DNA from: Paenibacillus sp. 481
GTDB taxonomy: Bacteria > Bacillota > Bacilli > Paenibacillales > Paenibacillaceae
Assembly: GCF_021223605.1 (NCBI RefSeq)
Contig: NZ_CP075175.1
Coordinates: 4,295,501-4,359,500, forward strand
Reading direction: 5' to 3'
Length of the DNA stretch: 64,000 nt
The notes below the pieces were generated by a model. It saw nothing but the letters and a program-made list of their open reading frames with translations, did no database searches and was not told where the DNA came from. Shown here one piece after another: positions 1-48,689 of the stretch; within the stretch, counting starts at the first letter, position 1; the number at the start of each line of letters is the position of its first letter. The position numbers were made by a program, and so were the translations under genes.

Positions 1-1400
1 TATCTCAAGAAATGCCGCTCATTAATTGCAGGCTTGTTGATTTTGATATAACTTGCCCAGTTACCCACGGTCGTATATTGGCACAGGAAGCCCTGCATCT
101 AGAACAAGGCTCGATTGAGACGCTTGTTGCGTATCGTGGTCAAAAACGTCTCGTAGAACGAATTGAAAAAATGATGATTACTGACAACGTTAAACAGGAA
201 ATTCCATTCAAGCAAAAAGGTAATTATCTTATCACAGGCTTAGGTGGAATAAGTCAGCTGGTAGCTAGCTACTTACTGGAGAACTTTGAAGCTCGTCTTG
301 TCATTCTTGGTAGAACGGAGCTTGCAAATTGGTCCAGAGAGATAAAAAAACAGTATGAAGCTTTGTGTGAGCTTGCTAAGAAAAATGGTGGCTCGATTGA
401 ATTTAAAGCAACCGATATTACAAATGAGGATTCGGTGCGGACAATTGTCCATGATGCTGAAAGCAACTGGTCCGAACAGCTAGACGGAATTATTCATCTC
501 GCCGGAGTGATTGAAGAACGGCTGTTGACTGATTTAATGGTGGAAGAGCTAGAAGCTCAGTATGAAGCCAAAGTATATGGCTCTTATGTCCTGCATCAAA
601 TAGCGTTGCAGAGACCGAATTGTCAGTTTATTGCAGCTTCATCCGCACGAAGCTTCCTTTCGGGGATGACTCTGGGTGGATATTGTTCAGCTAACGGATT
701 TGTTGAGGTGTTTACCCAGTATCAGCATTATAGATGCGGAACGAATGCGGCCTGTTTTGCATGGAGCGTGTGGGATGAAATCGGAATGAGCCGCAATTTA
801 ATTACGAAACAAGCATTGCTTGCTAGAGGATATATGCCCATCACGTCATACCAAGGCATTTACTCCCTGCTAGCTGGGTTAATGACAGGTCGCGCGATGC
901 TGTTCATTGGAATTGACGGTAGCAAGCAAGATTTCCGTGATCGTAATGTGGAGCTGGTTACTACACAACATAGATTGTATGCGTTTGTTGAGACGAAAGA
1001 GGCGCAACATATTCAAACTTCACAGATTGTAAACTCGATTACGGAATTCTTGAAGAATGAGGCGATTGAGCATCAAGTACGCGTAAAGAAGCTAAATACT
1101 TTACCGTTAACTGAACATGGTCAAATCGATCGGGCTATTCTTGTTCAGCTTATGGAGTCAGAGACAACGAAGCGTAAATATGTGTTGGCAGAGACAGAGC
1201 TAGAGAAACAGCTAGTCCAAATGTGGCTCCACATCCTCGCTATTAAACAGCTAAGTGTTGAAGACAATTTCTTTGCTCTAGGGGGCCATTCACTGAAAGC
1301 AACACAGCTTGTATCGCGCATAAAGGAGCGATTTCAAGCGGACGTTACGCTGCAAGATTTATTTCTTAATCCTACAGTCCGACAGTTTGCTGCCCTTGTA
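1..1400 (+). other. Alpha-hydroxy-acid module: KR plus pseudo-Asub plus carrier
   Basis: The KR shows a nucleotide-binding TGLGGIS at residues 75-81, Ser 210/211, and a YxxxN pair (Tyr224, Asn228), so it looks active. After it comes a stretch that reads like the end of an adenylation domain (LPLTEHGQIDRAIL, about bases 1100-1140), then a peptidyl carrier with LGGHSLKA. In normal A domains the motif is NGK with a catalytic Lys; here the Lys is Gln, while all ten other A domains in this window keep Lys. This matches the published architecture of keto-acid modules (StsA, CesA, Vlm), where a non-catalytic pseudo-Asub follows an inserted KR. The inferred job is selection of an alpha-keto acid by an A domain lying upstream of the window, and its reduction to a hydroxy acid. 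A polyketide KR is the alternative, but the A-like tail and PCP-type carrier argue against it. Confidence 0.8.
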
Positions 1401-18200: not shown

Positions 18201-21200
18201 AGCCTGGGAAAAAGCTCTACTTAACGGGTGATCTCGCCAAGTTTAGTTACGATGGCCATATTGATTATATTGGTCGGATGGACAAACAGCTCAAAATACG
18301 TGGTTTTCGCATTGAGCCAGATGAAATCAAGGCGCGTATCGTACAGCATGAAGCGGTGAAAGAAGCGATTGTCATTCCTATGCTGGACGAGCACGAGCAA
18401 GCGTATTTATGTGCTTATTATGTCGCGCAGCAGCCGATTTCGCGCTCGGAATTGCGCCAAAGTTTGCGGTCGGTTTTACCAGGCTATATGATGCCTGCCT
18501 TTTTAGTAGAAGTCGAGCAATTTACGTTAACGCCAAATGGGAAAATTGATCAGCGCCTGCTACCAAAGCCTGAAGAAGACGTTTTTAGTGAAAAGTATGC
18601 TCCCCCAGAAAGGGTCACAGAAATACGTCTCGCTAGGATGATGGAAGAGGTATTAGGTATTGGATCAGTAGGCTTGCACCATAATTTCTTCGACATCGGT
18701 GGTCAGTCTTTGAAAGCGATGATTCTTACGTCACGAATTCAGAAGGAGTTTGGTATACAGTTTTCGCTCCAGCAGGTGTTTGAGTACCCAAATGTAAAAG
18801 AAATGGCTTCTATCATTGATGATGCTGCCAACACGGGCTATATATCCATTCAACCTGCGGAAGTGAAGGAAGTGTACCCGGCAACTTCAGCACAAAAGCG
18901 GCTTTATGTCATTTCTCAAATGGATCGCAGCAGTCTGTTGTACAATATGCCAATCGCTTTTGAGGTACACGGTGAAATCGATTTACAGCGGCTGGATCAC
19001 GCTGTTCATCTGCTGTCCGACCGTCACGAAATTCTCCGTACGAGTCTGGAAATGAAACATGGCGAGTTGGTCCAGCGTGTGCATTCCGAGGCTGCTATCA
19101 AGCTTGAAGTTGTTGAGACGATTGGAACTATTGCGAGCAACGTAAATAATTGGTTACAGGAGTGGGTACGACCATTTGCGTTAAATCAGGCTCCGCTTGC
19201 ACGCATATGTCTCCTTCGTGTCGATACACACCGCAGTCTCCTTGTGTTGGATATGCATCATACGATCTCCGATGGGATGTCGATGAATATTTATCTTGAA
19301 GAGTTAATGAGGCTTTATCGTGGAGAGGCATTACCGCAGTTATCGTTGCAGTATAAGGACTATGCAGTGTGGCAGCAGCAATGTTACAGTTCGGACAAAA
19401 TGAAACAGCAGGAATCGTTCTGGGTTGAAGAGATGAGTGGCGAACTGCCGGTGCTTGAATGGCATACCGATTATCCGCGCCCACGGATACAGCAATTTGA
19501 CGGCAATCGGATTCGCGTTGAACTTTCAAAATCAACTAGCGAGCAGTTATATCGCTTATCAGAACAAAAGGGAGTAACCCTTTTCATGCTGCTGTTATCC
19601 GTATATAACGTCTTTCTATATAAGTGTACGGGGCAAGAGGATATTATTGTCGGCACGCCAATTGCGGGGCGGACCCATGCCGATGTGGAACGTATGGCAG
19701 GCATGTTTGTCAATACGTTAGCTTTAAGGAACTATCCGGCAGCAGACAAGACATTTTCACACTTTTTACAGGAAATCAAGCGCAATGTGTTACATGCATT
19801 TATCCATCAAGATTATTCGCTGGAACAATTGCTTGAACAGCTTGATGTAAACCGTAATCTTAGCCATAGTCCATTATTCAATACGATGCTCGTCCTGCAA
19901 AATATGGACAGTGTCGCGTACAGCCTAGATCAAGTGGCCTTGCAGCCTTATGAAATGGAAAATCGTACGGCAAAGTTCGATTTGACGGTGGGCATCACGG
20001 CTTACAAGGGACAGCTTTCGTTTGAATGGGAGTATAATACGCATCTGTTCCGCAAAGATACCATCGAGCGGATGTCGAGCAATCTCATACAATTAATTCA
20101 TGCCATAATTGAGCAGCCTGAGCAAAGTATTGCGCAATTGGAATGGGTCTGTGAGGAACAGCAACGACAAATTGTTGATCGGTTTTGCAGTAACGAAACA
20201 TCGTTCCCGCAAGACAAAACGATTCATCAATTGATGGAGGAACAAGCTGCGCTTCATCCAGATCGTATTGTTTTGGTAGACGAGGAAGAGCAATTTACGT
20301 ATGAACAAGTGAACAAGTCTGCTAATCAACTCGCTCATTTACTACGAGCAAAAGGTGTAGGTCCCAATCAAATCGTGGGCATCCTTGCCGAGCGCTCAGT
20401 AGAAATGGTGATAGGAATCTTAGCGATTCTCAAGGCAGGAGGGGCTTATTTACCACTTGATCATCATTTCCCAGAAGAACGAATCGCTTACATGCTGGAA
20501 GATAGTCAAGCACAGGTTGTTCTTGTCCAACATCATTTAGTAGAGCATATGAACTCGCTCAGTCAAGAGATTATCGTACTTCATCGAGAAACGGCTTATG
20601 TAGAAGTAAGCACGAATCTTGAAAAGATTAATGACCCCGACGATTTGGCTTATATCATTTATACTTCAGGGTCAACGGGCAAGCCCAAAGGTGTCTTAAT
20701 TAAGCACCGCAGTGTGGTTAACATTTTACATGCGCTGGAGATGGACTATCCGCTTTGTGAAGATGACGCGTACTTGTTCAAGACCACTTATACGTTTGAT
20801 GTATCTGTCGCTGAATTGTTCGGGTGGATCGTGGGTCGAGGCAGATTAGTTGTGCTCAAAGCGGGTGATGAACGAGATCCGCAGGCGATTTTGACTGCAA
20901 TTGAGAAGCATCACATTAGTCATATTAACTTTGTACCGTCTATGCTCCGGTTGATGTTTGTGAACAAACACCGGATTCATATCATGAACCGGTTGACCTA
21001 TGTGTTTGCAGCAGGCGAGGCACTTTCTAACGATTTGGTCGCTCTCTTTTATAGTCAGCTGGATCACGCAGAGCTCGTTAACTTGTATGGCCCTACGGAG
21101 TCTACCATTTATGCGACACAATTTAACATCAGTCGTAACTGGCAAGGGCCTACTCCGATTGGCCGCCCCGTTCGCAATGTACGGGCATATATTTTAAGTC

Positions 21201-24200
21201 GGGACGATCAGCACCAGCCAATAGGCGTGCCAGGCGAGTTGTGTTTGGCAGGGGAAGGGTTGGCCGTAGCCTACTTAAATAGGCCAGACTTGACAGCCGA
21301 GAAGTTCACTCCACATCCTGTGTTAACCGGGGAAACCATTTATCGTACCGGCGATCTTGCTGTCTGGGACCCTGAGGGTATCATTCATTACTTAGGGCGA
21401 CAAGACCAGCAAGTAAAAGTACGTGGCTATCGAATCGAACTTGGCGAAATACGTGCGAGATTGTTAGAACTGGATGGAATCGAGGATGCAATCGTAACGG
21501 TCATTCATACGGATCAGAATGAGCCATACTTGTGTGGGTATGTCGTCGCAAATCGTGTTAAGACGACGGCTGAAATGCGACAGCATCTTAAAAAAGAGCT
21601 TCCCGATTACATGGTTCCGGCTAGTTATGTACAATTGGAGACTTTTTCTTATACTGCAAGTGGAAAAATAGATACTAAGAGCCTTCCGCAGCCGACTGGC
21701 GGTGTTGAACGTGACAATGTGTACGTTCCTCCGGCAACGGAAACGGAGAAGCAGCTCGTTCTGATTTGGTCAGAAATATTATCCGTTCAACAGGTTGGTG
21801 CTGAAGATGACTTTTTCATGCTTGGTGGACATTCATTAAAAGCTACACTGCTCATAGCACGCATACAGGAGATACTGAACGTTGAAGTACCTTTCCGTGA
21901 CGTATTTACGAAAACGACTGTTCGCGAGATGGCTGCGGGCATAGACGCAGCTAGCGCTTCCCGTATTCAAGGTGTGAACTCGGATGAGCGCAATTATGGC
22001 GCGAGCATGTTGCCTAGAGCTGTTGTTGATCCTATCAAGTCTGCGGACCCAAGTGACTTGTATCCGGCGCTGCCAAGTCAAGTCAGGCTGTTCGTGTTAC
22101 AGCAGTTCAATCACGACAACTTGAGCTACAACATGCCAGCCGTGATGAAATGGAACGGCTCCTTACATGTGGAGCGTTTTCAGCAAGCGTGTGAGTATTT
22201 GGTCGTACGCCATGAAGCATTGCGCACCACTTTCCAAATGGTTGAGGGAGAGCTGAAGCAGCGTATTCATGACGCAAATTCGGCGGTATTTCCAGTGTTT
22301 AGCTACTGTCAAACGGAAGAAGAGAGCATACCGTCACTTATACAAGCATTTATACGACCATTTGATCTAAGTGAAGGACCACTTATTCGTATGAAATTAG
22401 TACAAATCACGACATCTGAATATGTATTCCTGCTCGATATGCATCACATTATTTCAGATGGTATGTCATTACAGGTGTTCATGCAGGAGTTACAACTGTT
22501 GCTTCATGGAGATGAGCTTCCTGATTTACCATTCCAGTTTAAAGATTACGCGGTGTGGCAGCTCAATCGACTGTCTGACAGCGTAAATGCCCAACACGAA
22601 CAATATTGGGAACGTGTATTCGACACGGATGTGCCCGTGCTTCAGTTGCCAACAGATTTTTCGAGGCCAGCGATTCAGCAATTTGAAGGTAATCGCATTT
22701 TGAAGAAGCTGAATGCGCCTTTGAGCCATTCCTTACAGCAGTTTGCTGCTAAGCAAAACGCGACTTTATTTATAACATTGCTTGCTGCGTACTATAAGCT
22801 GCTGCACATCTATAGTGGGCAAGACGATATAGTTGTCGGGATTCCTGTGTCAGGGCGTGCCAAGCAAGAACTACACCAAATAATAGGGATGTTCGTCAAC
22901 ACGGTTGCTATTCGCACTCAATTAGAAGAGGGACAATCGTTTAGCCATTTTCTCGCAACGGTGAAGAACAACGTGCTGGAGGCGCAGGAGCATCAGGACT
23001 ATCCTTTAGAAAAAGTAATTGAGCGTTTCGGTACGGAACGAGATTTAGGACGAAATCCATTGTTCGATACGATGTTCACGTTTAAAAATGAGGAACAGAG
23101 TGGGGTGGGAAAAGGAGATATCTCGTTTAGTCCGTACGATTTTGAACACTTGTATACTAAATTTGATTTAACGGTTGGTGCCATGGTGTCGGACCAGCAA
23201 ATCGTGATCGAATTTGAATTTAATACAAAGCTGTTTAAGCAGAGCACGATGGAGCGAATGGCAAGACACTTTGTTCACGTATTGGAGCAAATTGTGGCCA
23301 AGCCTAATGAACGTTTGTCTGAATTGCATGTGCTGACTGCTTCGGAGGAGAAACAACTGCTGGACGTATTTAACGATACATTTGTCGCGCATCCGGTGGA
23401 GTGCACGATTCATGAGCTGTTTGAACGACAGGTAGCGTTAACGCCGGATCATCCGGCTGTTGTGTTCGAGACTGCAAGTGACGATGCGGAACATGAGGTG
23501 GAGAAAGCTGGGCGGGGCAAGGCCGAGCATGTTCAATTGACGTATCGGGAGCTGAACGAACGTGCCAATCAGCTAGCCAGCATCCTAAGGCATAAGGGAG
23601 CGGGCATCCATACCGTTGTCGGCATTATGATGGAACGCTCATTGGATATGTTAGTCGGTGTGTTAGGTATTCTGAAGTCTGGAGCGGCGTATATGCCGAT
23701 TGATCCCGCCTATCCGCAGGAGCGGATCGAATATATGCTACAAGACAGTGGAACGAGCTTAGTCGTGACGCATCGAGAAGGACTGAAGTCGACCACCTTT
23801 GCTGGAGAAGTCGTGGATGTGGACCTGTTGAGCCTGCACACAGAGAACGAACAGGAGATATCCTTGAACCGGACGAGCGTGGAAGCGAGCCATTCGGCGT
23901 ATATCATTTATACGTCAGGCTCTACGGGCAAGCCAAAAGGGGTAGCCGTCGCGCATCGCTCACTCGTCAACCTTTCCTGCTGGCATAACCGGCACTTCTC
24001 GGTGACGGCATTGGATCGGAGTACAAAGTTTGCGGGGTTTGGATTTGACGCCTCGGTATGGGAAGTGTTCCCGTATTTGATTGCGGGTGCCACGTTATTC
24101 ATCGTTCCGGATGAAGCGCGGACGGATGTGCAACGACTGAACGCATTTATGGAGCGGAATGGCATAACGATAAGCTTTTTGCCAACGCCAATATGCGAGC

Positions 24201-26675: not shown

Positions 26676-29600
26676 GTGGACAAGAGCAAAATCGATAAAA
26701 TATACCCCTTATCTTCAATGCAAGAAGGGATGCTTTTTCATTCATTGCTTAGCCAAGAAGAAGCTACATATTTCGAGCAAGTGATACTCAAGTTGAACGG
26801 ACAGGTAGACCCGCTTGTTTTTGAACAAAGCGTGAAGGTTGTTATTGATCGATATGATATTTTTCGCACCGTCTTTCTTCATCTTAAAGTACAGAGACCG
26901 CGCCAAGTCGTCTTAAAAGAGAGGCCTTTTCAGCTTTATGTTGAAGATTTGACACATCTAGTTGAGAAAGAACAGCAGCAGTATTTGGAGCAATATATCG
27001 AACGGGACAAACAAAAAGGTTTTGAATTGTCTAAAGACGTGCTTATGCGCTTTGCACTTTTTCAAATTGGACAATCCGATTTTCAGTTAATTTGGAGCTA
27101 TCATCATATTTTAATGGACGGTTGGTGTACTTCCATTGTACTCGGTGAGCTGTTTCACATTTATCAATGTCTACATGCAGGCAAGCCCATTCTGTTAGCA
27201 CCTCCTACATCTTATGGAACATTCATAAAGTGGCTCGAGCAACAGGATAACGATGCTGCGACCGATTATTGGAACATGTATCTTCAACATTACGAGCTAA
27301 CGGCTGAGGTGCCCCTGAAGCAGCAGAATGGAGGGAATGCAAGCGCAAACCCCGATGTGAAATATGAAAATGCACAAGTGTTGCTAACGATTGATGAATC
27401 ACTGACGCATTCTTTTATGGAACTTGCGAAGCAGCTTCAAGTCACAGCCAATTGTCTGTTTCAGACGCTATGGGGCATATTGTTGCAGCGCTACAACAAT
27501 ACGGACGATGTCGTGTTCGGTGCGGTTGTTTCTGGGCGCCCAGCTGCTATTCAAGGAATCGAAACAATGGTCGGTTTATTTATCAATACGATACCGGTCA
27601 GAATTCAAACAGAAGCGGGTCAAACGGTGTCAGCACTCGTTCAACGCGTTCAGGAGGCTGCGATACAATCCGAACAATACAGTTATGTATCGCTAGCGGA
27701 TATTCAAGCTAAAAGTCAGTTGAGTCGCAATTTGTTTCAACATATTGTGACCTACCAGAACTTTGGTATGGCTTCGATGAACACCCTTTCTGACAAAGGA
27801 GAGTTACCGTTCACTATAGGTGATGTCAGCACGTATGAACAATCCAATTATGACTTCAACATTATGGTGGCACCACATGCACAATTAGGGCTTAAGTTTA
27901 TGTTTAATGCTGCGGTGTATGATGCAGCTCTTCCCTATCGGTTAGTGGAGCATTTTACATGTATGCTCAACCAGGTCGTACAAAATCCAGAAATTGCAGT
28001 AGAGCAATTGACTATTTCGTCCGATGCGGAGACGCAGTGGCTGCTGACGGAACTAACAGAAACGAAGTCCATATACGGCAAGGAAAAAACGTTGCAGCAG
28101 CACTTTGCGGAGCAAGTTGAGCGAACACCGGACCGTACGGCTATTGTGTTTGAAGGTCAAACGCTGACATACCGCGAGCTGAATGAACAGGCGAATCGAG
28201 CGGCACGCGTGCTGCGCGCTCAGGGGGTAGGGCCGAATGTGATCGTAGCTGTGCTGTGCGATCGATCGGTAGAAATGATTGTCGCGCTGCTGGCTATTCT
28301 CAAGGCAGGGGGAGCGTACCTTCCCATTGATCCCGACAATCCGCTCGAGCGTATTCGCTACATGCTAGAGGACAGCGGCGCGGCATGGCTTGTAACGCGC
28401 TCGCATTTGATCGCTGCTGCGGAGGTTGCTGCTAAAGCTGCTGCTGAAGTTGTTGCGAAAGCCGTGTTGGAAGCGACACCGGAAGCTAGGCCAGAAGCGG
28501 CATCAGGTGCTACTAAGCACGATACATATGCAGCAATACCTATTCTGCAACAATTTAAAGGAAAGCTTATCGTGATAGAGGAAGCCATGTCTGACGCACA
28601 ACGGTTCGATGAGCAGATGAAGGATTGCTGCGATGTAGCTGTAGACAGCAGCTCAGACGATTTGGCGTATGTTATTTATACGTCTGGCTCCACAGGGAAG
28701 CCCAAGGGCACGCTTGTGAAGCACTACAATGTAAGTCGAGTAGTCAAAGCAACGAACTACATTCAAATCGATGAGAAGGACAACGTACTGCAATTGTCCA
28801 ACTATGCCTTTGATGGTTCAACGTTCGATATTTACGGAGCGTTGTTGAATGGTGCGACGCTGGTGCTATTGAAGCGTGAAGATGTGACGGACATCGGGAA
28901 GCTTGCAGGAACGATTCGAGAGCAAGGCATTACGGTGTTCTTTATTACAACGGCTTTATTTAATGTGTTGATTGATTTGGATGCGAGCTGCTTAAAGAAC
29001 GTGCGCAAAGTATTGTTCGGCGGGGAGAACGTATCGGTGTCCCACGTTCGACAAGCACTGGAAGTGGTAGGAGAAGATGTGCTGACACACGTCTACGGCC
29101 CGACGGAAAGCACGGTATTTGCCACGGCGTATTCGATACGGGAGGTGGAAGAAGGTGCGGCAACGGTGCCGATCGGTCGTCCGCTAGCTAACACAGAAGC
29201 GTATGTCATGGACAGCAAAATGCGAATGCAGCCGCGAGGAATTCCGGGGGAGCTATGCTTAGGTGGAGACGGGCTGGCCGCAGGCTATTTGAATCAGCAC
29301 GAATTAACTGCTGAGAAATTCGTGGCGCACCCATATGTGTCTGGCGAGAAGCTGTATCGGACAGGGGACTTGGTTCGTGTCTCGGAAGATGGACAGATCG
29401 AATATATCGGTCGTATCGACCAGCAGGTTAAAATTCGCGGCTTCCGCATCGAACCCGACGAAATTGCAGTTCAGTTACGTGAGCATCCGGCAATCCAAGA
29501 AGCAGTTGTCGTTGCCATTCAGGGTGGGACTGGGGAATCCCATTATTTGTGCGCATATTACGTACCCAATCAACCCATTGAGGTTGCCGAGTTACGTACA

Positions 29601-32600
29601 CATATTGCAGCAATATTGCCTCAATATATGGTTCCGACCTATTACGTTGAACTTAATCGTATTCCATTAACGCCAAACGGTAAAATAGACAAAAAAGCGC
29701 TTCCCCAACCGAATAGTAGTGAACATTTTGCTGCTGCACTTTATGTACCACCTGAAAATGAAACTGAGGCTGACCTGCTCTTGATTTGGGAAGACGTATT
29801 GGGCTCTACAGGAATAGGAACGTCGGACAGCTTTTTCGAACGAGGTGGACATTCCCTTAAGGCGATTATGTTAATGTCTCGCATTCAAAAGCAATTTCAT
29901 GTAGATATTCCATTGCGTCTTATTTTGCAGCATCCTACCATTAAAAGCATGGCGAGCCTCATTTTGAATGGTACAGAACAAGAACAGGACGTAATTGCAG
30001 CAGCAAGTCCAATGGAATATTATCCGGCTTCATCGGCACAGAAACGAATGTATATGGTAAGTCAATTTCAGGAAGTGGGAACGTCTTACAATATACCTTA
30101 CCTTACACATATTAGAGGTCCGCTAGACATAGAGCGTTTACGACAAGCTGTGAGTAAATTAACGGATCGGCACGAATCGTTGCGTACCTCATTCATGTTG
30201 CTAAACAATGAAATCGTGCAGCAGATTCACGACCAAGTAGACGTTCCGTTTACGGTTATTTTGTGTACACGCGAAGAGGTCGCCAGCTACAGTTCAACCT
30301 TTATTCGTCCATTTGTGTTGCAGCAAGCCCCGCTGCTACGTGTAGAGCTTCTGCAATTAGCGGAAGAAGAATTCGTATTGATGATCGATGTACACCATAT
30401 CGTTTCAGATGGTATATCGTCGCAAATTCTTATTAGGGAGCTGCAGCAGCTATATGATACAAAATCATTGCCGCAGCTTCGAATCCAGTACAAAGATTAT
30501 GCTGTCTGGCAATTGCAGCAAGCTCAATCAGACACCATGAAAAAGCATGAAGACTATTGGCTGGCACAATTTCATGGGGAAGTGCCTGTACTGGAGTTGC
30601 CGACTGATTTTCCTAGGTCTGCTGTTAAACAATACGAAGGTAATCGCCACGTCTTTCGTGTGGATCGCCAAATCGTGGATCAGCTTTCGCAGGTGTGTCA
30701 CAAACAGCAATCCACGCTATATATGATATTGTTAGCTGCTTATCATGTATTTTTGTCCCGTTATTCGGGACAAGACGATATCGTTATCGGCTCGCCAATA
30801 GCAGGTCGTTCCCATGTTGATTTAGAACCGATTGTTGGTATGTTCGTGAATACACTTGCTATTCGCAATACATGTTCATCGGAGCAAACCTTTATTAACT
30901 TTTTAACAGATGTAAAAGAGACCGTCCTGCGTGCTTTTGAGCATGAGCAATATCCGCTTGAAGAAGTAATAAATAAGTTGGATTTGCAGCGTGACAGTAG
31001 TCGGAATCCTTTATTCGACACGATGTTCGCCCTACAAAATATGCAGCTGGCACAAAATGAGAGCAGCGAACTTGTCTTTCAACCATATCCTTTCAACTTA
31101 GAAATATCCAAATTTGATCTTATGTTCGTTGCCTTACAGCAAGAAGATGGACTATATGTTGAAATCGAATATCGAACAAGTCTATTCAAGGCTGAAACGA
31201 TTGAACGTATGGGTAAGCATTTTGCCAGACTCTTAACAGAAATCGCTATCCATCCAGAGCGCTTAATAGGACAACTTTCAATGATCAGTGAAGATGAAGA
31301 AATGCTGTTCGATAAGGTGAATGCTACGGACATCAGCTCTACACAGCTGACGCTAGCTCAAATATTCGAAATGCAGGTTGAATCAGCACCTGAGAAAATC
31401 GCCTTGACCATAGGAGAGCGTGACGTTAGCTACCAAACGTTAAATAAGCGTGCCAATCAAATAGCTCACTTTCTACGCGCTAATCAAGTAGGTGCGAACG
31501 CGAGAGTCGCGCTTATGTTATCGCGTTCTACTGATATGATAGCCGCCATTTTTGGCGTAATGAAGGCAGGAGGAGCATATGTTCCAATCGATCCGGACTA
31601 TCCTGCTGACCGTGTCAACTACATGCTGCATGACAGCCAAGCGTTGTTATTGCTGACCGATCAAGAGATCGGCGACACGGTCCAATTTGAGGGTGAAATT
31701 AAACAACTGCAGCAGATCGAATTAAGCGATTTTCCGAGCAGCAATATGGTAGCTAACTGTTCGCCTAGCGATTTGGCTTATGTGATGTATACATCCGGTT
31801 CTACAGGACGACCTAAAGGCACGTTAACGACACATCAAAACATTATTAGAGTTGTGAAAAATACGAATTATATTCAAATACAGCCTGATGATAGACTCTT
31901 GCAGTTATCCAATTATGCCTTTGATGGCTCGACCTTTGATATTTTTGGGGCATTACTCAATTGCGCTAGACTCGTATTGGTGTCTAAAGATACCATGTTG
32001 GATATCGATGCGTTAACTGAACTTATTCAGCGAGAGCAAATTACGGTATTTTTTATTACAACAGCACTCTTCAATACACTGGTCGATGTCAATGTAGGCG
32101 CTTTGCAGCGAGTGCGAAAAATTTTGTTCGGTGGAGAGAAAGTGTCCATTCGCCATGTACGATCAGCGTACTCTATCCTTGGACCAGGCAAGCTTGTTCA
32201 TATGTATGGACCAACCGAAAGCACCGTGTATGCGACGTTCTACCCTATTCTACAAGTAGAAGCGAATGCTCATACCGTTCCAATCGGCCGACCACTTGCC
32301 AACACGCAGGTATATGTACTCGACCGTCATGATCGGCTGCAAATGATAGGTGTGCCTGGTGAATTGTGCATTTCGGGGCAAGGATTATGCGAAGGTTATT
32401 TAAACAATGCGGAAATGACGGCGGAAAAGTTTGTCGAGCATCCATTCCTGCCTCATGAGCGACTTTATAGAACTGGTGACCTTGTAAAAATGCTGCCAGA
32501 CGGCAACTTGGAATATATTTCGCGTATGGACAATCAGGTTAAACTGCGCGGCTATCGGATTGAACTCGGTGAAATTACGAGACAACTCCTAGCGATTGAA

Positions 32601-35600
32601 GAGGTTGAATCAGCGTTTGTCGTAGCTCGGACAGATAACCAAGGACAAGGTTATCTCTGTGCATACGTCGTCATGGACGATGAGCGGGATGAGAGCTTTT
32701 TACGCGAAAGTTTATCAGAATTGCTACCGAGCTATATGATGCCAGCCTACTTTGTTATTGTGCCGGAAATGCCGCTTACGCCTAATGGGAAAATCGATCA
32801 GAGGGCGTTGCCACAGCCTGATGTGGGCGATGTGTTTACGGTTGAATACGTGAAGCCGGAAACCGCAGTTGAGCGACGTTTAGCGGAAATTTGGGCAAGT
32901 ATACTCGGTGTTAATAAGGTTGGATTGAATGATAACTTTTTCAAATTAGGAGGTCATTCACTCAAAGCTAGTGTGCTCGTTTCCCGCATTCGCCTTGAAA
33001 TGCAAGCTACTGTAACGTTAAGTGACTTATTTCAGCGTCCCACTGTTCGGGAACTAGCAGCTTTGTTGGCCATTCAACCAAAATCGGTTGTCGATGAATA
33101 TATTCTTAAGGCTATAGATGATCGCTTGTACTACCCAACTTCATCCGCGCAAAAAAGAATGTATTATGTCAGTCAATTGGATAGTGAAGGAATTACTTAC
33201 AATATGCCGCTAATTGTGCGGTTGCCTTCAAATGTGAACATGGATCGATTGATACAGAGCCTACATTGGCTAGTGGAACGGCATGAGTCGTTGCGTACCT
33301 CCTTTAACATGATAGAAGGGGAACTTGTTCAGCAGATTCATCAGAACGTATCCTTTGTCGTAACTTCGGCAACCATTCGCGCCGAGGAAGTTGCTGGCCG
33401 GAAGCAAGCGTTTGTACGTGCATTTGATTTACACCGAGCTCCTTTACTAAGAGCCGAACTGTTACACGTGGAGAATGAATCCTTTATATTGTTACTGGAT
33501 ATGCATCATATCGTGTCAGATGGCGTTTCCATTAGTATTTTCGTTAATGAACTAAACGAGCTTTATAAGGGCCAAGCTTTGCCACCGTTAACGATTCATT
33601 ACAAAGACTATGTAGTGTGGAAGCAGTCGCAAAAAAATCATAAGAATTGGCTCGATGCAGAACGGTATTGGCTAAACCGTTTTACAGATGATGTACCCGT
33701 CTTGCAACTTCCAACCGATTATGCAAGACCAGCTATTCAAAAGTTTGGAGGAAGTAGACATTCAATTGTGCTCAATCGGGACAGTGGGTTACGTATACAC
33801 GATCTTTGCAAAGAGTGGGGGATGACAACCTACACGTTGCTATTGGCCGCATATGCAGTGTTCTTGCATAAATATACGGAGCGAGAAGACGTCATCATAG
33901 GATCGCCTGTCACAGGTCGGAACCATCCCGATATAGACGGTACGCTCGGTATGTTTGTAAATATGCTCCCATTGAGAGTCTTTCCGCACAAGACCAGAAC
34001 GTTTGCCGAACTAGCGGAAGAAGTTAAGCAAATCGTAGTCGATGCATATCCTCACCAAGATTACCCGTTAGAGGATATGATTGAACAGCTTGGTGTACGC
34101 CGAGACATGAGTAGGAATCCATTATTTGACACCGTATTTACGTATCAACCATTTGAAGCCAATCGAGGTATGAATGGATTCGCGGAACCATCGTTGCTAG
34201 TGGAAGACACCGAGCACGGCTTGTCCAAATTCGACTTAACGGTGAGTGTAACCGAACAGGAGTATGCGCACCTTTGTGTTGAAATGGAATACAGCACCCA
34301 TTTATTCAAGCATAGTACGGTAGAGCGAATGGCAGGACACTTTGTTCACGTATTGGAGCAAATTGTGGCCAAGCCTAATGAACGTTTGTCTGAATTGCAT
34401 GTGCTGACTGCTTCGGAGGAGAAACAACTGCTGGACGTATTTAACGATACATTTGTCGCGCATCCGGTGGACTGCACGATTCATGAGCTGTTTGAACGAC
34501 AGGTAGCGTTAACGCCGGATCATCCGGCTGTTGTGCTCGAGACTGCAAGTGACGATGCGGAACATGAGGTGGAGAAAGCTGGGCGGGGCAAGGCCGAGCA
34601 TGTTCAATTGACGTATCGGGAGCTGAACGAACGTGCCAATCAGCTAGCTAGCATCCTAAGGCATAAGGGAGCGGGCATCCATACCGTTGTCGGCATTATG
34701 ATGGAACGGTCATTGGATATGTTAGTCGGTGTGTTAGGTATTCTGAAGGCTGGAGCGGCGTATATGCCGATTGATCCCGCCTATCCGCAGGAGCGGATCG
34801 AATATATGCTACAAGACAGTGGAACGAGCTTAGTCGTGACGCATCGAGAAGGGATGAAGTCGACCACCTTTGCTGGAGAAGTCGTGGATGTGGACCTGTT
34901 GAGCCTGCACACAGAGAACGACACAGAGAACGAACAGGAGATAACCTTGAACCGGACGAGCGTGGAAGCGAGCCATTCGGCGTATATCATTTATACGTCA
35001 GGCTCTACGGGCAAGCCAAAAGGGGTAGCCGTCGCGCATCGCTCACTCGTCAACCTTTCCTGCTGGCATAACCGGCACTTCTCGGTGACGGCATTGGATC
35101 GGAGTACAAAGTTTGCGGGGTTTGGATTTGACGCCTCGGTATGGGAAGTGTTCCCGTATTTGATTGCGGGTGCCACGTTATTCATCGTTCCGGATGAAGC
35201 GCGGACGGATGTGCAACGTCTGAACGCATTTATGGAGCGGAATGGCATTACGATAAGCTTTTTGCCAACGCCAATATGCGAGCCCTTTATGGAGCTGGAC
35301 AACAGCTCGTTACGGCTGTTGTTGACAGGTGGGGAGAAGTTGAAGACGTATCGGAAGCAGAGCTACCAACTCGTCAATAACTATGGACCGACCGAAAACA
35401 CGGTAGTGGCAACGAGCTACAGCGTACAGGAAGCGGAGACGAATTTGCCGATAGGAAAGCCGATTGATAATGTACGTGTGTACATTGTGAGCAAGGATGG
35501 CAAGCTGCAGCCCATCGGGATTCCAGGGGAGCTGTGCTTGGCAGGAGAAGGTCTGGCGCAAGGTTATTTGCACCAGCCAGAGATGACGGCACAAAAGTTC

Positions 35601-37595
35601 GAAGCAAACCCGTACGAGGCGGAGGGGTTGCTGTATCGGACAGGCGATTTGGCGCGTTGGCGTGAGGATGGAAACATCGAATACTTAGGCCGGATCGATA
35701 GCCAAGTGAAAGTGCGTGGATTTCGGGTGGAGCTGGGTGAAATTACGCAACGTCTCATCCAGCATGAAGCGGTGAAAGAGGCTGTCGTGCTAGGGAAGCA
35801 GGATAGTCGCGGACACGTGTATTTAGCGGCATATGTAGTTGGTCGGAAGGAATGGAGTGTGGCACAGCTGCGCACATGGCTTGCGCAAGCGCTGCCGGAC
35901 TATATGGTTCCGACATACTATGTCGGGCTAGAAGCGCTTCCACTTACGGCAAATGGCAAAGTAGATGAGCGTGCTTTACCTGAGCCAGACAACGATTTTG
36001 TGAACGAGACACCATATGTTGCTCCTGTTACTTGGCATGAGAAAATACTTGCCGAAATTTGGGGAGAAGTTCTAGGTGTTGAAGGATTGGGCGTTCATGA
36101 TCATTTCTTTGAGCGGGGTGGCCATTCTTTGAAAGTAACGCAAGTGGTTAACCGGATTAGCGAACAATTTAATGTGACGTTTCCGTTGCGTTTATTTTTC
36201 GAAAGGCCGACCATTATGGAACAAGCTGCCTATGTGGCGCAGGTAGGAAACGGAGAGAAAAATGTTAAGGAAGTGCTCATTCCAATTGTGGAAGAGCGTG
36301 AATATTATCCGGTTACGCCGTTACAATTGTATACCTATCAATCAAGCTCGGATCAGACGATCTACAATATGCCACAGGTGTTAAAGGTCGAAGGCTTGCT
36401 TGATATGAAGCGGTTGGAGCGAAGCTTCCGCACTATAGTGGAACGGCATGAAGCGCTTCGTACTTCGTTCACGGAAATCGATGGCGTATTAATGATGAAA
36501 ATAGACCAAGAAGTACGATTTGAACTGGTAGTGGAACAAGCGTGGGAAGAAGATGTATCGAATAAAATAAATGATTTTATTCGACCGTTTGACCTGAATT
36601 CAGCGCCGCTGATTCGAGCAAAAGTGATTCAAATCGAACACGAGTCTTATATACTGATGGTCGATATGCATCACATTATATCGGACGGCATCTCATTCTC
36701 TATCTTTTTCAACGAACTAATGATGATCTATCAAGGTCAGAGCGAGCTTCAGCCGCTTCGTATTCAATTTAAAGATTTTGTCGTATGGAGCAGCGAGCAG
36801 TTGCATAGTGGTGCATTGGAGCAGACAGAGCAATTTTGGCGGAGTCAATTAGGGAAGAATCCACCCGTTTTGCAAATCGAAACGGATTATCCGCGTCCTA
36901 GCATTCGCTCGTTTGAAGGCGATCAAATTCGCTTCACGCTTGACGAATCGTTGACCGAACAAGTTCGAAACTTTAGTCTTCAGCATGATGTTACCCTGTA
37001 CATGACATTACTTGCTGCCTACTATGCTTTATTAATGAAATATTCAAATCAGGAGGATATTATCGTCGGTACGCTAGTTGCTGGACGCCCTACTTCAGAA
37101 TTGGAGCGTGTCATGGGGCTATTTATCAACTCGTTGCCGCTACGTAACTATCCGACACCTGATAAGTCTTATAAGCAGTTCGCTATGGAAGTAAGGACGA
37201 ATTTACTTGCCGCCTATGAGCATCAGCATTATCCATTTGAGGCACTAGTTGAAACATTAAATGTGCCTAGTGATCCAAGTCGAAGTGACTGGTATGATAC
37301 AGCGTTTTCCTTTTTAAACATGGCTCCTGTTCAATTACAAGTAGACGGTCTTAGCTTTGCGACGTATCCGTTTGACTGGAAAGTTGCTGAGCACGATTTC
37401 TACTTAGTAGGAGTAGAGGGAGAGCACGAAATTATTCTGGATTTTGCGTATTGCACAAAGCTATTTAATAAAAATACAATACTAGCAATGGCCAACGACT
37501 TTAGAAGTGTCGTCGAGCAAGTCATGGCTAATTCAGAAGTGAAGTTGTCAGAGCTTGAGCTTGCTATGAACAAGATTGAACAGGGAGCCCTTTAA
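26676..37595 (+). CDS. Nonribosomal peptide synthetase, three modules plus terminal condensation domain: C-A-T x3, C
   Basis: This is a 3639-residue protein with a GTG start at 26676, placed 9 bases after AAGGAGG. Approximate residues: C1 8-440 (SMQEGMLFH opening, typical of D-donor C domains, so it fits the D-Leu end of the previous protein), A1 470-1009, T1 1055, C2 1112-1539, A2 1559-2047, T2 2090, C3 2150-2579, A3 2602-3104, T3 3149, terminal C 3209-3635. Pocket codes: A1 DGFFLGVVF (Ile), A2 DGFFLGMVY (Ile or Val), A3 DAWFLGNVV (Leu). The protein ends about 20 residues after the last C domain, with no carrier, thioesterase, reductase or COM tail. A1 and A3 are near-copies of A2 and A5 of the preceding gene. 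Order and docking signals place this as the last synthetase. Confidence 0.97.
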   Translation: MDKSKIDKIYPLSSMQEGMLFHSLLSQEEATYFEQVILKLNGQVDPLVFEQSVKVVIDRYDIFRTVFLHLKVQRPRQVVLKERPFQLYVEDLTHLVEKEQQQYLEQYIERDKQKGFELSKDVLMRFALFQIGQSDFQLIWSYHHILMDGWCTSIVLGELFHIYQCLHAGKPILLAPPTSYGTFIKWLEQQDNDAATDYWNMYLQHYELTAEVPLKQQNGGNASANPDVKYENAQVLLTIDESLTHSFMELAKQLQVTANCLFQTLWGILLQRYNNTDDVVFGAVVSGRPAAIQGIETMVGLFINTIPVRIQTEAGQTVSALVQRVQEAAIQSEQYSYVSLADIQAKSQLSRNLFQHIVTYQNFGMASMNTLSDKGELPFTIGDVSTYEQSNYDFNIMVAPHAQLGLKFMFNAAVYDAALPYRLVEHFTCMLNQVVQNPEIAVEQLTISSDAETQWLLTELTETKSIYGKEKTLQQHFAEQVERTPDRTAIVFEGQTLTYRELNEQANRAARVLRAQGVGPNVIVAVLCDRSVEMIVALLAILKAGGAYLPIDPDNPLERIRYMLEDSGAAWLVTRSHLIAAAEVAAKAAAEVVAKAVLEATPEARPEAASGATKHDTYAAIPILQQFKGKLIVIEEAMSDAQRFDEQMKDCCDVAVDSSSDDLAYVIYTSGSTGKPKGTLVKHYNVSRVVKATNYIQIDEKDNVLQLSNYAFDGSTFDIYGALLNGATLVLLKREDVTDIGKLAGTIREQGITVFFITTALFNVLIDLDASCLKNVRKVLFGGENVSVSHVRQALEVVGEDVLTHVYGPTESTVFATAYSIREVEEGAATVPIGRPLANTEAYVMDSKMRMQPRGIPGELCLGGDGLAAGYLNQHELTAEKFVAHPYVSGEKLYRTGDLVRVSEDGQIEYIGRIDQQVKIRGFRIEPDEIAVQLREHPAIQEAVVVAIQGGTGESHYLCAYYVPNQPIEVAELRTHIAAILPQYMVPTYYVELNRIPLTPNGKIDKKALPQPNSSEHFAAALYVPPENETEADLLLIWEDVLGSTGIGTSDSFFERGGHSLKAIMLMSRIQKQFHVDIPLRLILQHPTIKSMASLILNGTEQEQDVIAAASPMEYYPASSAQKRMYMVSQFQEVGTSYNIPYLTHIRGPLDIERLRQAVSKLTDRHESLRTSFMLLNNEIVQQIHDQVDVPFTVILCTREEVASYSSTFIRPFVLQQAPLLRVELLQLAEEEFVLMIDVHHIVSDGISSQILIRELQQLYDTKSLPQLRIQYKDYAVWQLQQAQSDTMKKHEDYWLAQFHGEVPVLELPTDFPRSAVKQYEGNRHVFRVDRQIVDQLSQVCHKQQSTLYMILLAAYHVFLSRYSGQDDIVIGSPIAGRSHVDLEPIVGMFVNTLAIRNTCSSEQTFINFLTDVKETVLRAFEHEQYPLEEVINKLDLQRDSSRNPLFDTMFALQNMQLAQNESSELVFQPYPFNLEISKFDLMFVALQQEDGLYVEIEYRTSLFKAETIERMGKHFARLLTEIAIHPERLIGQLSMISEDEEMLFDKVNATDISSTQLTLAQIFEMQVESAPEKIALTIGERDVSYQTLNKRANQIAHFLRANQVGANARVALMLSRSTDMIAAIFGVMKAGGAYVPIDPDYPADRVNYMLHDSQALLLLTDQEIGDTVQFEGEIKQLQQIELSDFPSSNMVANCSPSDLAYVMYTSGSTGRPKGTLTTHQNIIRVVKNTNYIQIQPDDRLLQLSNYAFDGSTFDIFGALLNCARLVLVSKDTMLDIDALTELIQREQITVFFITTALFNTLVDVNVGALQRVRKILFGGEKVSIRHVRSAYSILGPGKLVHMYGPTESTVYATFYPILQVEANAHTVPIGRPLANTQVYVLDRHDRLQMIGVPGELCISGQGLCEGYLNNAEMTAEKFVEHPFLPHERLYRTGDLVKMLPDGNLEYISRMDNQVKLRGYRIELGEITRQLLAIEEVESAFVVARTDNQGQGYLCAYVVMDDERDESFLRESLSELLPSYMMPAYFVIVPEMPLTPNGKIDQRALPQPDVGDVFTVEYVKPETAVERRLAEIWASILGVNKVGLNDNFFKLGGHSLKASVLVSRIRLEMQATVTLSDLFQRPTVRELAALLAIQPKSVVDEYILKAIDDRLYYPTSSAQKRMYYVSQLDSEGITYNMPLIVRLPSNVNMDRLIQSLHWLVERHESLRTSFNMIEGELVQQIHQNVSFVVTSATIRAEEVAGRKQAFVRAFDLHRAPLLRAELLHVENESFILLLDMHHIVSDGVSISIFVNELNELYKGQALPPLTIHYKDYVVWKQSQKNHKNWLDAERYWLNRFTDDVPVLQLPTDYARPAIQKFGGSRHSIVLNRDSGLRIHDLCKEWGMTTYTLLLAAYAVFLHKYTEREDVIIGSPVTGRNHPDIDGTLGMFVNMLPLRVFPHKTRTFAELAEEVKQIVVDAYPHQDYPLEDMIEQLGVRRDMSRNPLFDTVFTYQPFEANRGMNGFAEPSLLVEDTEHGLSKFDLTVSVTEQEYAHLCVEMEYSTHLFKHSTVERMAGHFVHVLEQIVAKPNERLSELHVLTASEEKQLLDVFNDTFVAHPVDCTIHELFERQVALTPDHPAVVLETASDDAEHEVEKAGRGKAEHVQLTYRELNERANQLASILRHKGAGIHTVVGIMMERSLDMLVGVLGILKAGAAYMPIDPAYPQERIEYMLQDSGTSLVVTHREGMKSTTFAGEVVDVDLLSLHTENDTENEQEITLNRTSVEASHSAYIIYTSGSTGKPKGVAVAHRSLVNLSCWHNRHFSVTALDRSTKFAGFGFDASVWEVFPYLIAGATLFIVPDEARTDVQRLNAFMERNGITISFLPTPICEPFMELDNSSLRLLLTGGEKLKTYRKQSYQLVNNYGPTENTVVATSYSVQEAETNLPIGKPIDNVRVYIVSKDGKLQPIGIPGELCLAGEGLAQGYLHQPEMTAQKFEANPYEAEGLLYRTGDLARWREDGNIEYLGRIDSQVKVRGFRVELGEITQRLIQHEAVKEAVVLGKQDSRGHVYLAAYVVGRKEWSVAQLRTWLAQALPDYMVPTYYVGLEALPLTANGKVDERALPEPDNDFVNETPYVAPVTWHEKILAEIWGEVLGVEGLGVHDHFFERGGHSLKVTQVVNRISEQFNVTFPLRLFFERPTIMEQAAYVAQVGNGEKNVKEVLIPIVEEREYYPVTPLQLYTYQSSSDQTIYNMPQVLKVEGLLDMKRLERSFRTIVERHEALRTSFTEIDGVLMMKIDQEVRFELVVEQAWEEDVSNKINDFIRPFDLNSAPLIRAKVIQIEHESYILMVDMHHIISDGISFSIFFNELMMIYQGQSELQPLRIQFKDFVVWSSEQLHSGALEQTEQFWRSQLGKNPPVLQIETDYPRPSIRSFEGDQIRFTLDESLTEQVRNFSLQHDVTLYMTLLAAYYALLMKYSNQEDIIVGTLVAGRPTSELERVMGLFINSLPLRNYPTPDKSYKQFAMEVRTNLLAAYEHQHYPFEALVETLNVPSDPSRSDWYDTAFSFLNMAPVQLQVDGLSFATYPFDWKVAEHDFYLVGVEGEHEIILDFAYCTKLFNKNTILAMANDFRSVVEQVMANSEVKLSELELAMNKIEQGAL
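28074..29437 (+). repeat. Duplicated Ile adenylation core, copy 2
   Basis: Second copy of the block at 13751-15150, including a shorter Ala/Glu-rich insert (about 28406-28520). Downstream of 29437 the sequence turns into an unrelated small A subdomain, marking the recombination edge at the A8 hinge. Confidence 0.93.
34323..35990 (+). repeat. Duplicated Leu adenylation domain, copy 2
   Basis: Second copy of the block at 23252-24907. It differs by scattered single bases and a 12-bp in-frame duplication near 34916-34932 (ACAGAGAACG repeated). It ends at the LPEPD motif, after which the carrier domains differ (GGHSL here, GGDSI in copy 1). Confidence 0.93.
36290..37560 (+). other. Terminal condensation domain with intact active site
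   Basis: It starts with YYPVTPLQ, has HHIISDG at about 36668-36688, and continues with the usual C-domain motifs through the IIVGT...GR and MGLFINSLPLR regions. Everything expected of an active C domain is there, but no module follows. In known systems, terminal C domains release the chain by cyclization or by condensing it with a free amine or other nucleophile; which applies here cannot be read from sequence. Confidence 0.85.
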
Positions 37596-37633
37596 ACAGA
37601 CGGAATACCTAACATCTAAATGAGGTGAGATAT

Positions 37634-38740
37634 TTGAGTAAAATGAGAACAGGTCCACTTTTACCTATTGTGTTTATTATGATTGCAATCATGTTGTCCG
37701 GCGCTGCTTATTTCTTACTTCGACAAGAGATCGTGAACGAAACCGTAATCATGAGCTCTAATATCGGAATGATCGTATTAATACCGACAACCTTTTATTT
37801 ACTGTGGGCCAGACCTAAATCGTTGCCGAGAGAGTATGTATATGTGTGGTTTATTTTTTCCGTAGCATTGACGTACTTTATAACACCGCTTGAGCATCGG
37901 TATTTTTTGCAAGGGGTGTTGAAATGGCTGCTGCCTGTCGTAGAAATATTGCTAGTGCCTTATATCATTTATCGGATATATACGATCGTTAAGCGTTATC
38001 GTGCAGTAGGTAATCGTGAAGAATTGGACCCGATCAGCACGATGAAAGAAGCGCTGATGCCGATTATGGGTGATGGTGTCGTACTTAATATTTTGCTTAC
38101 AGAAATGAGCGTATTTTTTTATTCATTGTTCGCGTGGTTTAAAAAAAATAACGAGCCCAAACCTGGTACGTATACGTATCATAAAGACTCACAAATTAAA
38201 GTCATCGTTATCGTGTTTATCATTTTAATTATCGTAGAGTCAGTAGCTTTGCATTTTTTACTCGTACGATGGAGCATTGTCCTTGCATGGATCACAGCGG
38301 TATTGAATGTATACGGTATTTTGTACATGATAGCCTTGTACAATTCTTTCCGTCTTCGTCCGCACCGTTTAACAAATGGGCAGCTGAAAGTGAATTTAGG
38401 TTTTCAGGGTAGTATTACAGTTGAAGTGGACAATATCGAAGCGGTAAACCAAGCGAAACCATTTGAATTAGGTGAAAAAATTCCAGATGACATTTTCGTC
38501 TCATTTATGCGTTTGGATGCTCCGCAATTGGAAATCTGTTTAAAAGAGCCTGTGCAGATGCAAGGCTCGTATGGAATAAAAAAAATGATTTCTAAAGTCG
38601 TGATGAGGGCCGATAACGTGAATGATTTTACTGCTGAACTTGAACAAATGCGCGATCGCTATGCGGATACCGAGGCGTATTCCAATATTCAACGCGAACA
38701 AGAATCATCACCGTCCGTCATTCAATCTCAAAGCTATTAA
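37634..38740 (+). CDS. Multi-pass membrane protein with C-terminal soluble domain, last gene of the NRPS unit
   Basis: I choose the TTG at 37634, which follows GAGGTGAG by about 4 bases; a GTG at 37625 lies inside that ribosome site and ATG 37643 is a fallback. The protein has four hydrophobic segments in its first 110 residues and two more near residues 190-235, a charged loop between, and a soluble C-terminal part of about 130 residues (LTNGQLKVNLGF onward) that looks beta-rich, possibly PH-like. It has no ABC, MFS or RND motifs. It starts 38 bases after the last synthetase and precedes a strong terminator, so it is probably co-transcribed. A role in self-protection or export is possible but unproven; I do not recognise a characterised family. 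Confidence 0.85.
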   Translation: MSKMRTGPLLPIVFIMIAIMLSGAAYFLLRQEIVNETVIMSSNIGMIVLIPTTFYLLWARPKSLPREYVYVWFIFSVALTYFITPLEHRYFLQGVLKWLLPVVEILLVPYIIYRIYTIVKRYRAVGNREELDPISTMKEALMPIMGDGVVLNILLTEMSVFFYSLFAWFKKNNEPKPGTYTYHKDSQIKVIVIVFIILIIVESVALHFLLVRWSIVLAWITAVLNVYGILYMIALYNSFRLRPHRLTNGQLKVNLGFQGSITVEVDNIEAVNQAKPFELGEKIPDDIFVSFMRLDAPQLEICLKEPVQMQGSYGIKKMISKVVMRADNVNDFTAELEQMRDRYADTEAYSNIQREQESSPSVIQSQSY

Positions 38741-38775: not shown

Positions 38776-38823
38776 GCCTGAAGAAATCATGGAGCATTTG
38801 CCTGATTAACTTCAGGCTTTTTT
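38776..38823 (+). terminator. Rho-independent terminator after the NRPS operon
   Basis: Perfect stem GCCTGAAG (38776-38783) / CTTCAGGC (38810-38817), followed by six T. It lies 35 bases after the stop of the membrane protein gene and closes the biosynthetic transcript. Confidence 0.85.
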
Positions 38824-41123: not shown

Positions 41124-41183
41124 CATGTGAATACTATGACTGTGTGAAAGCAACAAGGATAAATGCACAGGAGGAGTATACGT

Positions 41184-42905
<1,722 letters not shown>

Positions 42906-45873: not shown

Positions 45874-48689
<2,816 letters not shown>

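What the first reader, a model, noticed from the sequence alone, without database searches (positions are those of the whole stretch)
36290..37595. NRPS line ends in an intact C domain, with no release domain nearby
The last synthetase finishes with a C domain keeping HHIISDG, without carrier, TE, R or docking tail, and no TE or additional NRPS gene follows before the terminator. In Bacillales lines TE or reductase release is usual. A terminal C could cyclise the chain, or join it to an amine or other nucleophile supplied from outside.
Basis: partly seen in the sequence, partly recalled or inferred. Interest (0 to 1): 0.75.

Follow-up and report, generated by a model that had tools for sequence, protein, structure and literature searches.

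The report
Peptide assembly line with amine-releasing end
A bacterial peptide factory stops at a bond-forming domain instead of the usual release enzyme, and sequence comparisons suggest that this last domain frees the finished peptide by attaching it to a small free amine.

Summary
The third synthetase (26676-37595) ends in a complete C domain with HHIISDG and has no carrier, TE, reductase or docking tail after it. The nearest PF00975 hit is about 510 kb away.
The missing tail is informative. Of nine C-ended proteins read in this genome, six have an aromatic tail and all six a partner gene. This one and a second line (5.22 Mb) have neither.
Both belong to a clade of 11 tail-less terminal C domains (support 0.997). 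All 11 carry Tyr at the arginine that gates the acceptor channel, and Glu for a conserved Lys. Neither change occurs in 189 distinct elongation domains. By position counting the Glu falls on a putrescine-binding Asp of glidonin synthetase.
In the only close ortholog found, genes for 1,3-diaminopropane lie just downstream.
Most likely the domain releases the peptide as an amide of a free amine. The amine here is unidentified: this genome lacks the decarboxylase. Cyclisation is not excluded. Terminal-C amine release is known; this clade looks like a new variant.

The parts
1..9098 (+). NRPS gene 1, its 5' part lies upstream (L001:16971 on): FAAL-like AMP-binding, KR, T-C-A-T-C-A-T-E
9230..26596 (+). 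NRPS gene 2: five C-A-T modules then E
26676..37595 (+). NRPS gene 3: three C-A-T modules then terminal C
36048..36233 (+). last carrier (T) domain, donor to the terminal C
36291..37592 (+). terminal, tail-less C domain
36330..36332 (+). codon of Tyr14 (Arg in 183 of 189 distinct LCL-position elongation C domains; gate position of the acceptor channel)
36669..36689 (+). HHIISDG catalytic motif
37389..37391 (+). codon of Glu367 (Lys in 159 of 189, acidic in none)
37625..38740 (+). P0004, 371 aa, hydrophobic segments by eye (probable membrane protein), no Pfam family; a homolog follows the terminal C in G246 too
38800..38817 (+). terminator-like stem with T-run, possible operon end
   Evidence: one found, mean 2.7 in shuffles, so weak on its own

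Best explanation
The terminal C domain is the chain-release enzyme of a ten-module lipopeptide line that starts with a FAAL-like domain and a KR. The last carrier presents the finished chain at the donor side. The His of HHIISDG promotes attack by the amino group of a small free amine, most likely a diamine or polyamine, which enters where an acceptor carrier would normally dock, and the product leaves as a C-terminal amide. Shown here: the architecture, the missing tail and partner, the clade, its diagnostic residues, and the diaminopropane-type genes beside the one close ortholog. Inferred: the reaction, the role of Glu367 as ligand of the distal ammonium group, and the identity of the amine.
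For: Terminal C with intact motif and no TE, reductase or partner found nearby. Of 9 C-ended proteins read in the genome, 6 have a tail and all 6 a partner gene; the two release-type ones have neither. 11 tail-less terminal C domains form one clade, support 0.997, and in each profile search the members sampled ranked above every internal C domain seen. Tyr14 11/11 versus 0/189 and Glu367 11/11 versus 0/189. Position 14 lies in helix 1 and falls on R2577 of the fuscachelin C3 domain in the structural alignment, whose ends pair model residue 1 with 2564 (assuming no gap in the first 14 residues); R2577 gates the acceptor channel and contacts the acceptor pantetheine arm (PMC8097023, passages). 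Position 367 counts onto D9965 of glidonin C13, needed for putrescine use and replaceable by Glu (PMC10587159, passages; counting). In G246 the terminal C gene, the P0004 homolog, a diaminobutyrate transaminase, a diaminobutyrate-decarboxylase-like enzyme and a TEII are consecutive. In the 12 other family genomes with a close Ddc, Dat and Ddc sit together, followed by an open frame of 611-674 aa, an IucA/IucC synthetase in 5 of 5 tested.
Against: No Ddc homolog in this genome (none either) and no amine-forming gene among the neighbouring ORFs scanned. The diaminopropane link rests on one genome, and its transaminase could instead supply Dab as a peptide residue. The decarboxylase scores 472 against the family cut-off of 900. 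B-type members show no Dat-Ddc beside the terminal C and carry PABA genes instead. Residues 365 and 386, which count onto glidonin S9963 and E9984, are Val and Ala here. The glidonin mapping rests on counting; its sequence was not in hand. Tyr at the channel gate could also narrow the acceptor side, as in cyclising domains. By fold and by sequence the nearest solved domains are ordinary elongation C domains.
Confidence: 0.66

Rival explanations
1. The terminal C cyclises the chain, like fungal CT domains. The KR of the loading module would make a hydroxyl on the starter acyl group, and the terminal C would close a lactone onto it.
Against: Line B, the sister group, has AMP-binding-T-C loading with no KR family in Pfam, yet shares the diagnostic residues. 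A diaminopropane gene pair in the ortholog's operon has no role in cyclisation. An acidic residue at 367 is not explained. HtmB2-CT is no closer than elongation domains.
Confidence: 0.15
2. A separate synthetase or TE encoded elsewhere acts in trans: a stand-alone subunit or a distant TE accepts the chain.
For: The genome has 17 PF00975 and 27 PF00144 hits at E 0.001. Two genes, at 3.695 and 4.980 Mb, start with a C-lobe plus A without a C-ended protein seen before them, and two more (0.63 and 3.704 Mb) start with shorter remnants. A TEII gene lies near the terminal C in 8 of the 9 other genomes read.
Against: The tail that goes with partner genes in 6 of 6 cases is absent. The clade has lost the acceptor-gate Arg. 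TEII enzymes are usually editing enzymes (recalled), and none was found in this cluster.
Confidence: 0.08
3. The terminal C hydrolyses the chain or is a relic, and release is by water or by an editing TE.
For: No amine gene found among the ORFs scanned here and no Ddc in the genome; hydrolysing terminal C domains are known but rare (PMC11546977, passages).
Against: HHxxxDG in 11 of 11 clade members and persistence in four genera (g1, g6, g17, g18) argue for a selected function; a relic would not share specific pocket changes.
Confidence: 0.07

Closest known systems
Glidonin synthetase termination module, C13 (Schlegelella brevitalea)
   Same: C domain attaches a free diamine to the carrier-bound chain; acidic residue (D9965) at the position that counts onto Glu367; Leu (L9860) at the position that counts onto Leu262, where 36 of 41 comparison domains have Pro (PMC10587159, passages).
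   Different: There C13 is followed by A*-T-TE; here the protein ends. Residues at 365 and 386 differ. No sequence comparison was possible.
Malleobactin, bicornutin and rhabdopeptide/xenortide terminal C domains
   Different: Sequences not in hand, so relatedness was not tested; they come from Gram-negative bacteria (recalled).
Paenilamicin (Paenibacillus larvae)
   Same: A Bacillales line whose chain is released by spermidine without a thioesterase (PMC4397504, one passage).
   Different: PKS-NRPS hybrid with other residues; its terminal domain was not compared here.
Fungal CT cyclising domains; HtmB2-CT (8z0q)
   Same: Terminal C domain as release enzyme; acceptor side altered in the fungal ones (PMC11546977, passages).
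   Different: HtmB2-CT is no closer by sequence or fold than elongation domains; fungal CT sequences were not compared; no evidence of cyclisation here. What HtmB2-CT does I saw in no call.
OaaC and VibH stand-alone amide synthases
   Same: C domain that uses a free small amine as acceptor (PMC13142362, passages; VibH named in PMC10587159, passages).
   Different: Free-standing proteins; the OaaC type often has DHxxxDS, here HHIISDG.

Membership tests
Amine-releasing terminal C domain | C domain at the very end of the assembly line, catalytic HHxxxDG intact | tested here: met
Amine-releasing terminal C domain | No acceptor carrier or downstream partner | tested here: met
   no tail and no partner, against 6 of 6 tailed proteins with partner; no TE/NRPS nearby. 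A partner in trans is not strictly excluded
Amine-releasing terminal C domain | Acceptor pocket fitted to an amine (as glidonin S9963/D9965/E9984) | tested here: inconclusive
   Glu367 at the D9965 position in 11/11, but Val365 and Ala386 here; mapping by counting only
Amine-releasing terminal C domain | Amine source in the cluster (accompanying, not defining: glidonin uses free putrescine, PMC10587159) | tested here: not met
   none among the ORFs scanned here and no Ddc in the genome; present in the ortholog G246
Amine-releasing terminal C domain | Amide product | not testable with these tools
   needs product mass or enzyme assay
CT cyclising domain | Belongs to the CT clade, acceptor channel blocked | tested here: inconclusive
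   HtmB2-CT is in the fold lists but no closer than elongation domains; no fungal CT sequences in hand; channel not measured
Docking C domain with partner C-lobe-A subunit | Aromatic C-terminal tail and following gene starting with a C-lobe fused to A | tested here: not met
LCL condensation domain | Follows a module without E domain | tested here: met
LCL condensation domain | Groups with LCL domains in a tree | tested here: inconclusive
   the clade nests among LCL-position domains, but the joining nodes have support 0.17 to 0.51

The most novel reading that the evidence does not exclude
The 11 domains are a dedicated chain-release class of this bacterial family, derived from ordinary LCL domains by loss of the carrier-gating arginine (Arg14 to Tyr) and gain of an ammonium-binding acid (Lys367 to Glu). 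The two residues would let one read from sequence that a terminal C domain caps its peptide with a free amine, and the clade would make lipopeptides with cationic C-terminal caps, diaminopropane in one member.
Probability: 0.5. Interest if true: 0.75.

Novelty: new variant of a known kind. Interest (0 to 1): 0.6.

Why it matters
Release decides whether a nonribosomal peptide is cyclic, acidic or cationic, and terminal C domains are hard to interpret from sequence. A two-residue signature backed by a clade and a linked diamine pathway would make the release mode predictable and gives a concrete, testable product: a hydrophobic lipodecapeptide with an amine cap. It would also offer a natural amine-capping domain for peptide engineering.

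Tried and rejected
Frame or assembly error at the end: rejected, since the ortholog ends in the same way. A hidden docking tail: rejected by comparison with six tailed proteins. A domain at the end of a protein at 3.711 Mb looked like a third release C but has E-like features (RTIGFF); it was left out but is among the 41 comparison domains. The GNAT gene at 40220 with a weak spermidine-acetyltransferase hit (32 bits against a cut-off of 218) was not taken as evidence; it lies beyond the terminator-like stem. P0004 as a marker of such clusters: of limited use, because 73 of 394 family genomes, this one included, have a match at 1e-15, and three of the four further P0004 loci read show no NRPS domain in the stretch of about 20 kb. 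A short-segment PDB search gave only an unrelated weak hit. A paper on 8z0q was not found; its title came. Residue specificities (Pro, Ile, Leu) use recalled Stachelhaus codes read by eye and are tentative.

Limits of counts: candidates scored per genome were capped (5, 4). The phylum sample (398 genomes, threshold 1e-138) gave no member outside this genome. Ddc matches at 1e-40 occur in 29 of 394 genomes; only 13 score 527 bits or more, the rest 148 to 224. The tree is one FastTree run. A fungal CT fold is not among the 50 rows shown, which excludes nothing.
Full report
WHAT IS THERE. The window is part of a 5.69-Mb single-contig genome. Three NRPS genes run in one direction: gene 1 begins about 2.5 kb upstream of the window and reads FAAL-like, KR, T-C-A-T-C-A-T-E; gene 2 (9230-26596) has five C-A-T modules and an E domain; gene 3 (26676-37595) has three C-A-T modules and a last C domain. 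The start domain is called FAAL-like because its best NCBIfam hits are acyl ligases and fatty acyl-AMP ligases, below their cut-offs. That is ten residues. By recalled specificity codes read by eye they are about Pro, unknown, Ile, Ile, Ile, unknown, Leu, Ile, Ile, Leu, with D residues at 2 and 7 from the E domains. A 371-aa gene, probably for a membrane protein, starts 29 bases after the last stop, and a terminator-like stem lies about 60 bases after that gene.

CHECK OF THE OBSERVATION. The last C domain is complete, keeps HHIISDG, and the protein stops 7 residues after the match to my model; its predicted structure is a full C fold, mean pLDDT 89.4. None of the neighbouring ORFs scanned is a TE, a reductase or another synthetase, and the nearest PF00975 hit is about 510 kb away.

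THE MISSING TAIL IS MEANINGFUL. Among the stretches read in this genome nine proteins end in a C domain with HHxxxDG, E-like domains and proteins cut by a stretch end removed. Six end in an aromatic tail such as LESVDFTF or LDTIEFSF, and all six are followed by a gene that starts with a stand-alone C-terminal lobe of a C domain fused to an A domain. Three have no tail: this one, the last gene of a second line at 5.22 Mb (line B), and the first gene of line B, which is followed by an A-T gene. Only the first two have no NRPS gene after them.

A CLADE OF RELEASE DOMAINS. A profile of the two terminal domains was run over 295 family genomes. Ten domains in 9 genomes scored 486 bits or more, the next 453 or less. 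All eight loci outside this genome are terminal and tail-less. Of the 21 loci fetched below the gap, 19 are internal C-A, one is tailed with a C-lobe-A partner (L153) and one runs off the stretch (L164). A five-row profile over 392 order genomes added one genome, G307, with a gap from 551 to 499 bits; below it the loci read are internal, save the tailed L228. A 398-genome phylum sample added none. The resulting 11 domains (2 like this one, 9 like line B) are monophyletic among 153 C and E domains, support 0.997; their place among the LCL-position domains is weakly supported.

DIAGNOSTIC RESIDUES. The 11 were compared with 41 other LCL-position domains of this genome, 33 followed by A and 8 at protein ends, one of these E-like. 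11 of 11 terminal domains have Tyr14 (Arg in 39 of 41), Glu367 (Lys in 35) and Tyr371 (Thr or Ser in 34), with Leu277 and Ile279. In a larger set of 189 distinct LCL-position elongation domains Arg14 occurs in 183 and Tyr14 in none, Lys367 in 159 and Asp or Glu in none (190 with one repeat). The passages I read of PMC8097023 describe R2577 as the gate of the acceptor channel that also contacts the acceptor pantetheine arm. The structural alignment of the model to that domain (7kvw) starts at 1 and 2564, so residue 14 falls on 2577 if the first residues carry no gap, and residue 14 lies in helix 1. At this position LCL-position domains have Arg and 48 of 70 domains after E or at a gene start have Gly; the paper reports different patterns for LCL and DCL. 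Losing the gate residue fits a domain that no longer receives an acceptor carrier. The passages I read of PMC10587159 report that glidonin C13 joins free putrescine to the chain, that mutation of S9963, D9965 and E9984 to Ala greatly lowers the yield, and that D9965E recovers activity. I assigned our 262, 279 and 281 by motif to L9860, V9877 and T9879. The spacing (17, 2) agrees with glidonin, and with RzmA (16, 2) but for one residue. Continuing without gaps, S9963, D9965 and E9984 fall on 365, 367 and 386. Residue 386 lies in a strand, as the paper says of E9984. This is counting, not an alignment, and 365 and 386 do not match in kind.

THE AMINE. In G246 (L166) the A-type terminal C gene is followed by the P0004 homolog (54% identical), a class III aminotransferase above the EctB and diaminobutyrate-transaminase cut-offs, a decarboxylase whose best family is RhbB diaminobutyrate decarboxylase (472 bits, cut-off 900), and a TEII. 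Such a pair makes 1,3-diaminopropane (established for rhizobactin-type pathways; recalled). Ddc homologs of 527 bits or more occur in 13 of 394 family genomes. In the 12 others Dat precedes Ddc, and an open frame of 611-674 aa follows, an IucA/IucC siderophore synthetase in 5 of 5 tested. So the pair, elsewhere a siderophore module, sits behind the terminal C in G246. This genome has no Ddc, so its amine must be another one, perhaps a common cellular polyamine. Line B types carry PabA and PabBC upstream and show no Dat-Ddc beside the terminal C, so their nucleophile is open.

MECHANISM AND RIVALS. The best reading is amide release with a free amine (0.66). Cyclisation onto the KR-made hydroxyl is the main rival (0.15); line B, whose loading gene shows no KR in Pfam, and the diaminopropane genes speak against it, while the existence of a solved domain labelled CT (HtmB2-CT) among the matches speaks for keeping it. 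A trans-acting partner (0.08) and hydrolysis or decay (0.07) are less likely. A very hydrophobic decapeptide would gain an amphiphilic character from a cationic cap, which fits but proves nothing.

COMPARISON. Amine release by a terminal C domain is known: glidonin tested in vitro, malleobactin, bicornutin and others proposed, and paenilamicin released by spermidine without a thioesterase (PMC10587159, PMC4397504, passages). What differs is the lineage-restricted clade, its two-residue signature, the FAAL-like plus KR start and the linked diaminopropane-type genes in one ortholog. I saw no paper on this clade in the listings of searches, which cover open-licence papers only.

Noticed in passing
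L080, L083, L087, L093, L096, L097 and loci (for example L050, L052, L062): An intersubunit junction in which the upstream protein ends in a complete C domain with an xFxF-type tail and the next protein begins with an extra C-terminal lobe of a C domain (model positions about 182-446) fused to A. 6 of 6 tailed proteins here; a C-lobe plus A follows in 23 of 41 C-ended entries's loci, from Acidobacteriota, Aminicenantes, Clostridia and Bacteroidota among others. Not mentioned in the passages read of the docking-domain review PMC9113145.
   Followed up: partly
L095, L094, L131 (genome 5.216-5.256 Mb): Line B: a second line with a FAAL-like start and a terminal C, with PabA and PabBC genes directly upstream, found in several genera; p-aminobenzoate may be its starter.
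   Followed up: partly
window 41163-42905 and 45874-48669: Two collagen-repeat proteins.
   Followed up: no
L001:8976-15411: ECF transporter set with a Trep_Strep S component and two exporter-type ABC proteins upstream of the NRPS genes; resembles metallophore uptake sets (recalled).
   Followed up: no
G000:C1:4843957-4844529: A second P0004-like gene, interrupted by a stop, beside another NRPS cluster.
   Followed up: no
window 9230-26596 and 26676-37595: The last A domains of genes 2 and 3 look identical over the core shown, and the second A of gene 2 and first A of gene 3 nearly so, suggesting recent module duplication or conversion.
   Followed up: no
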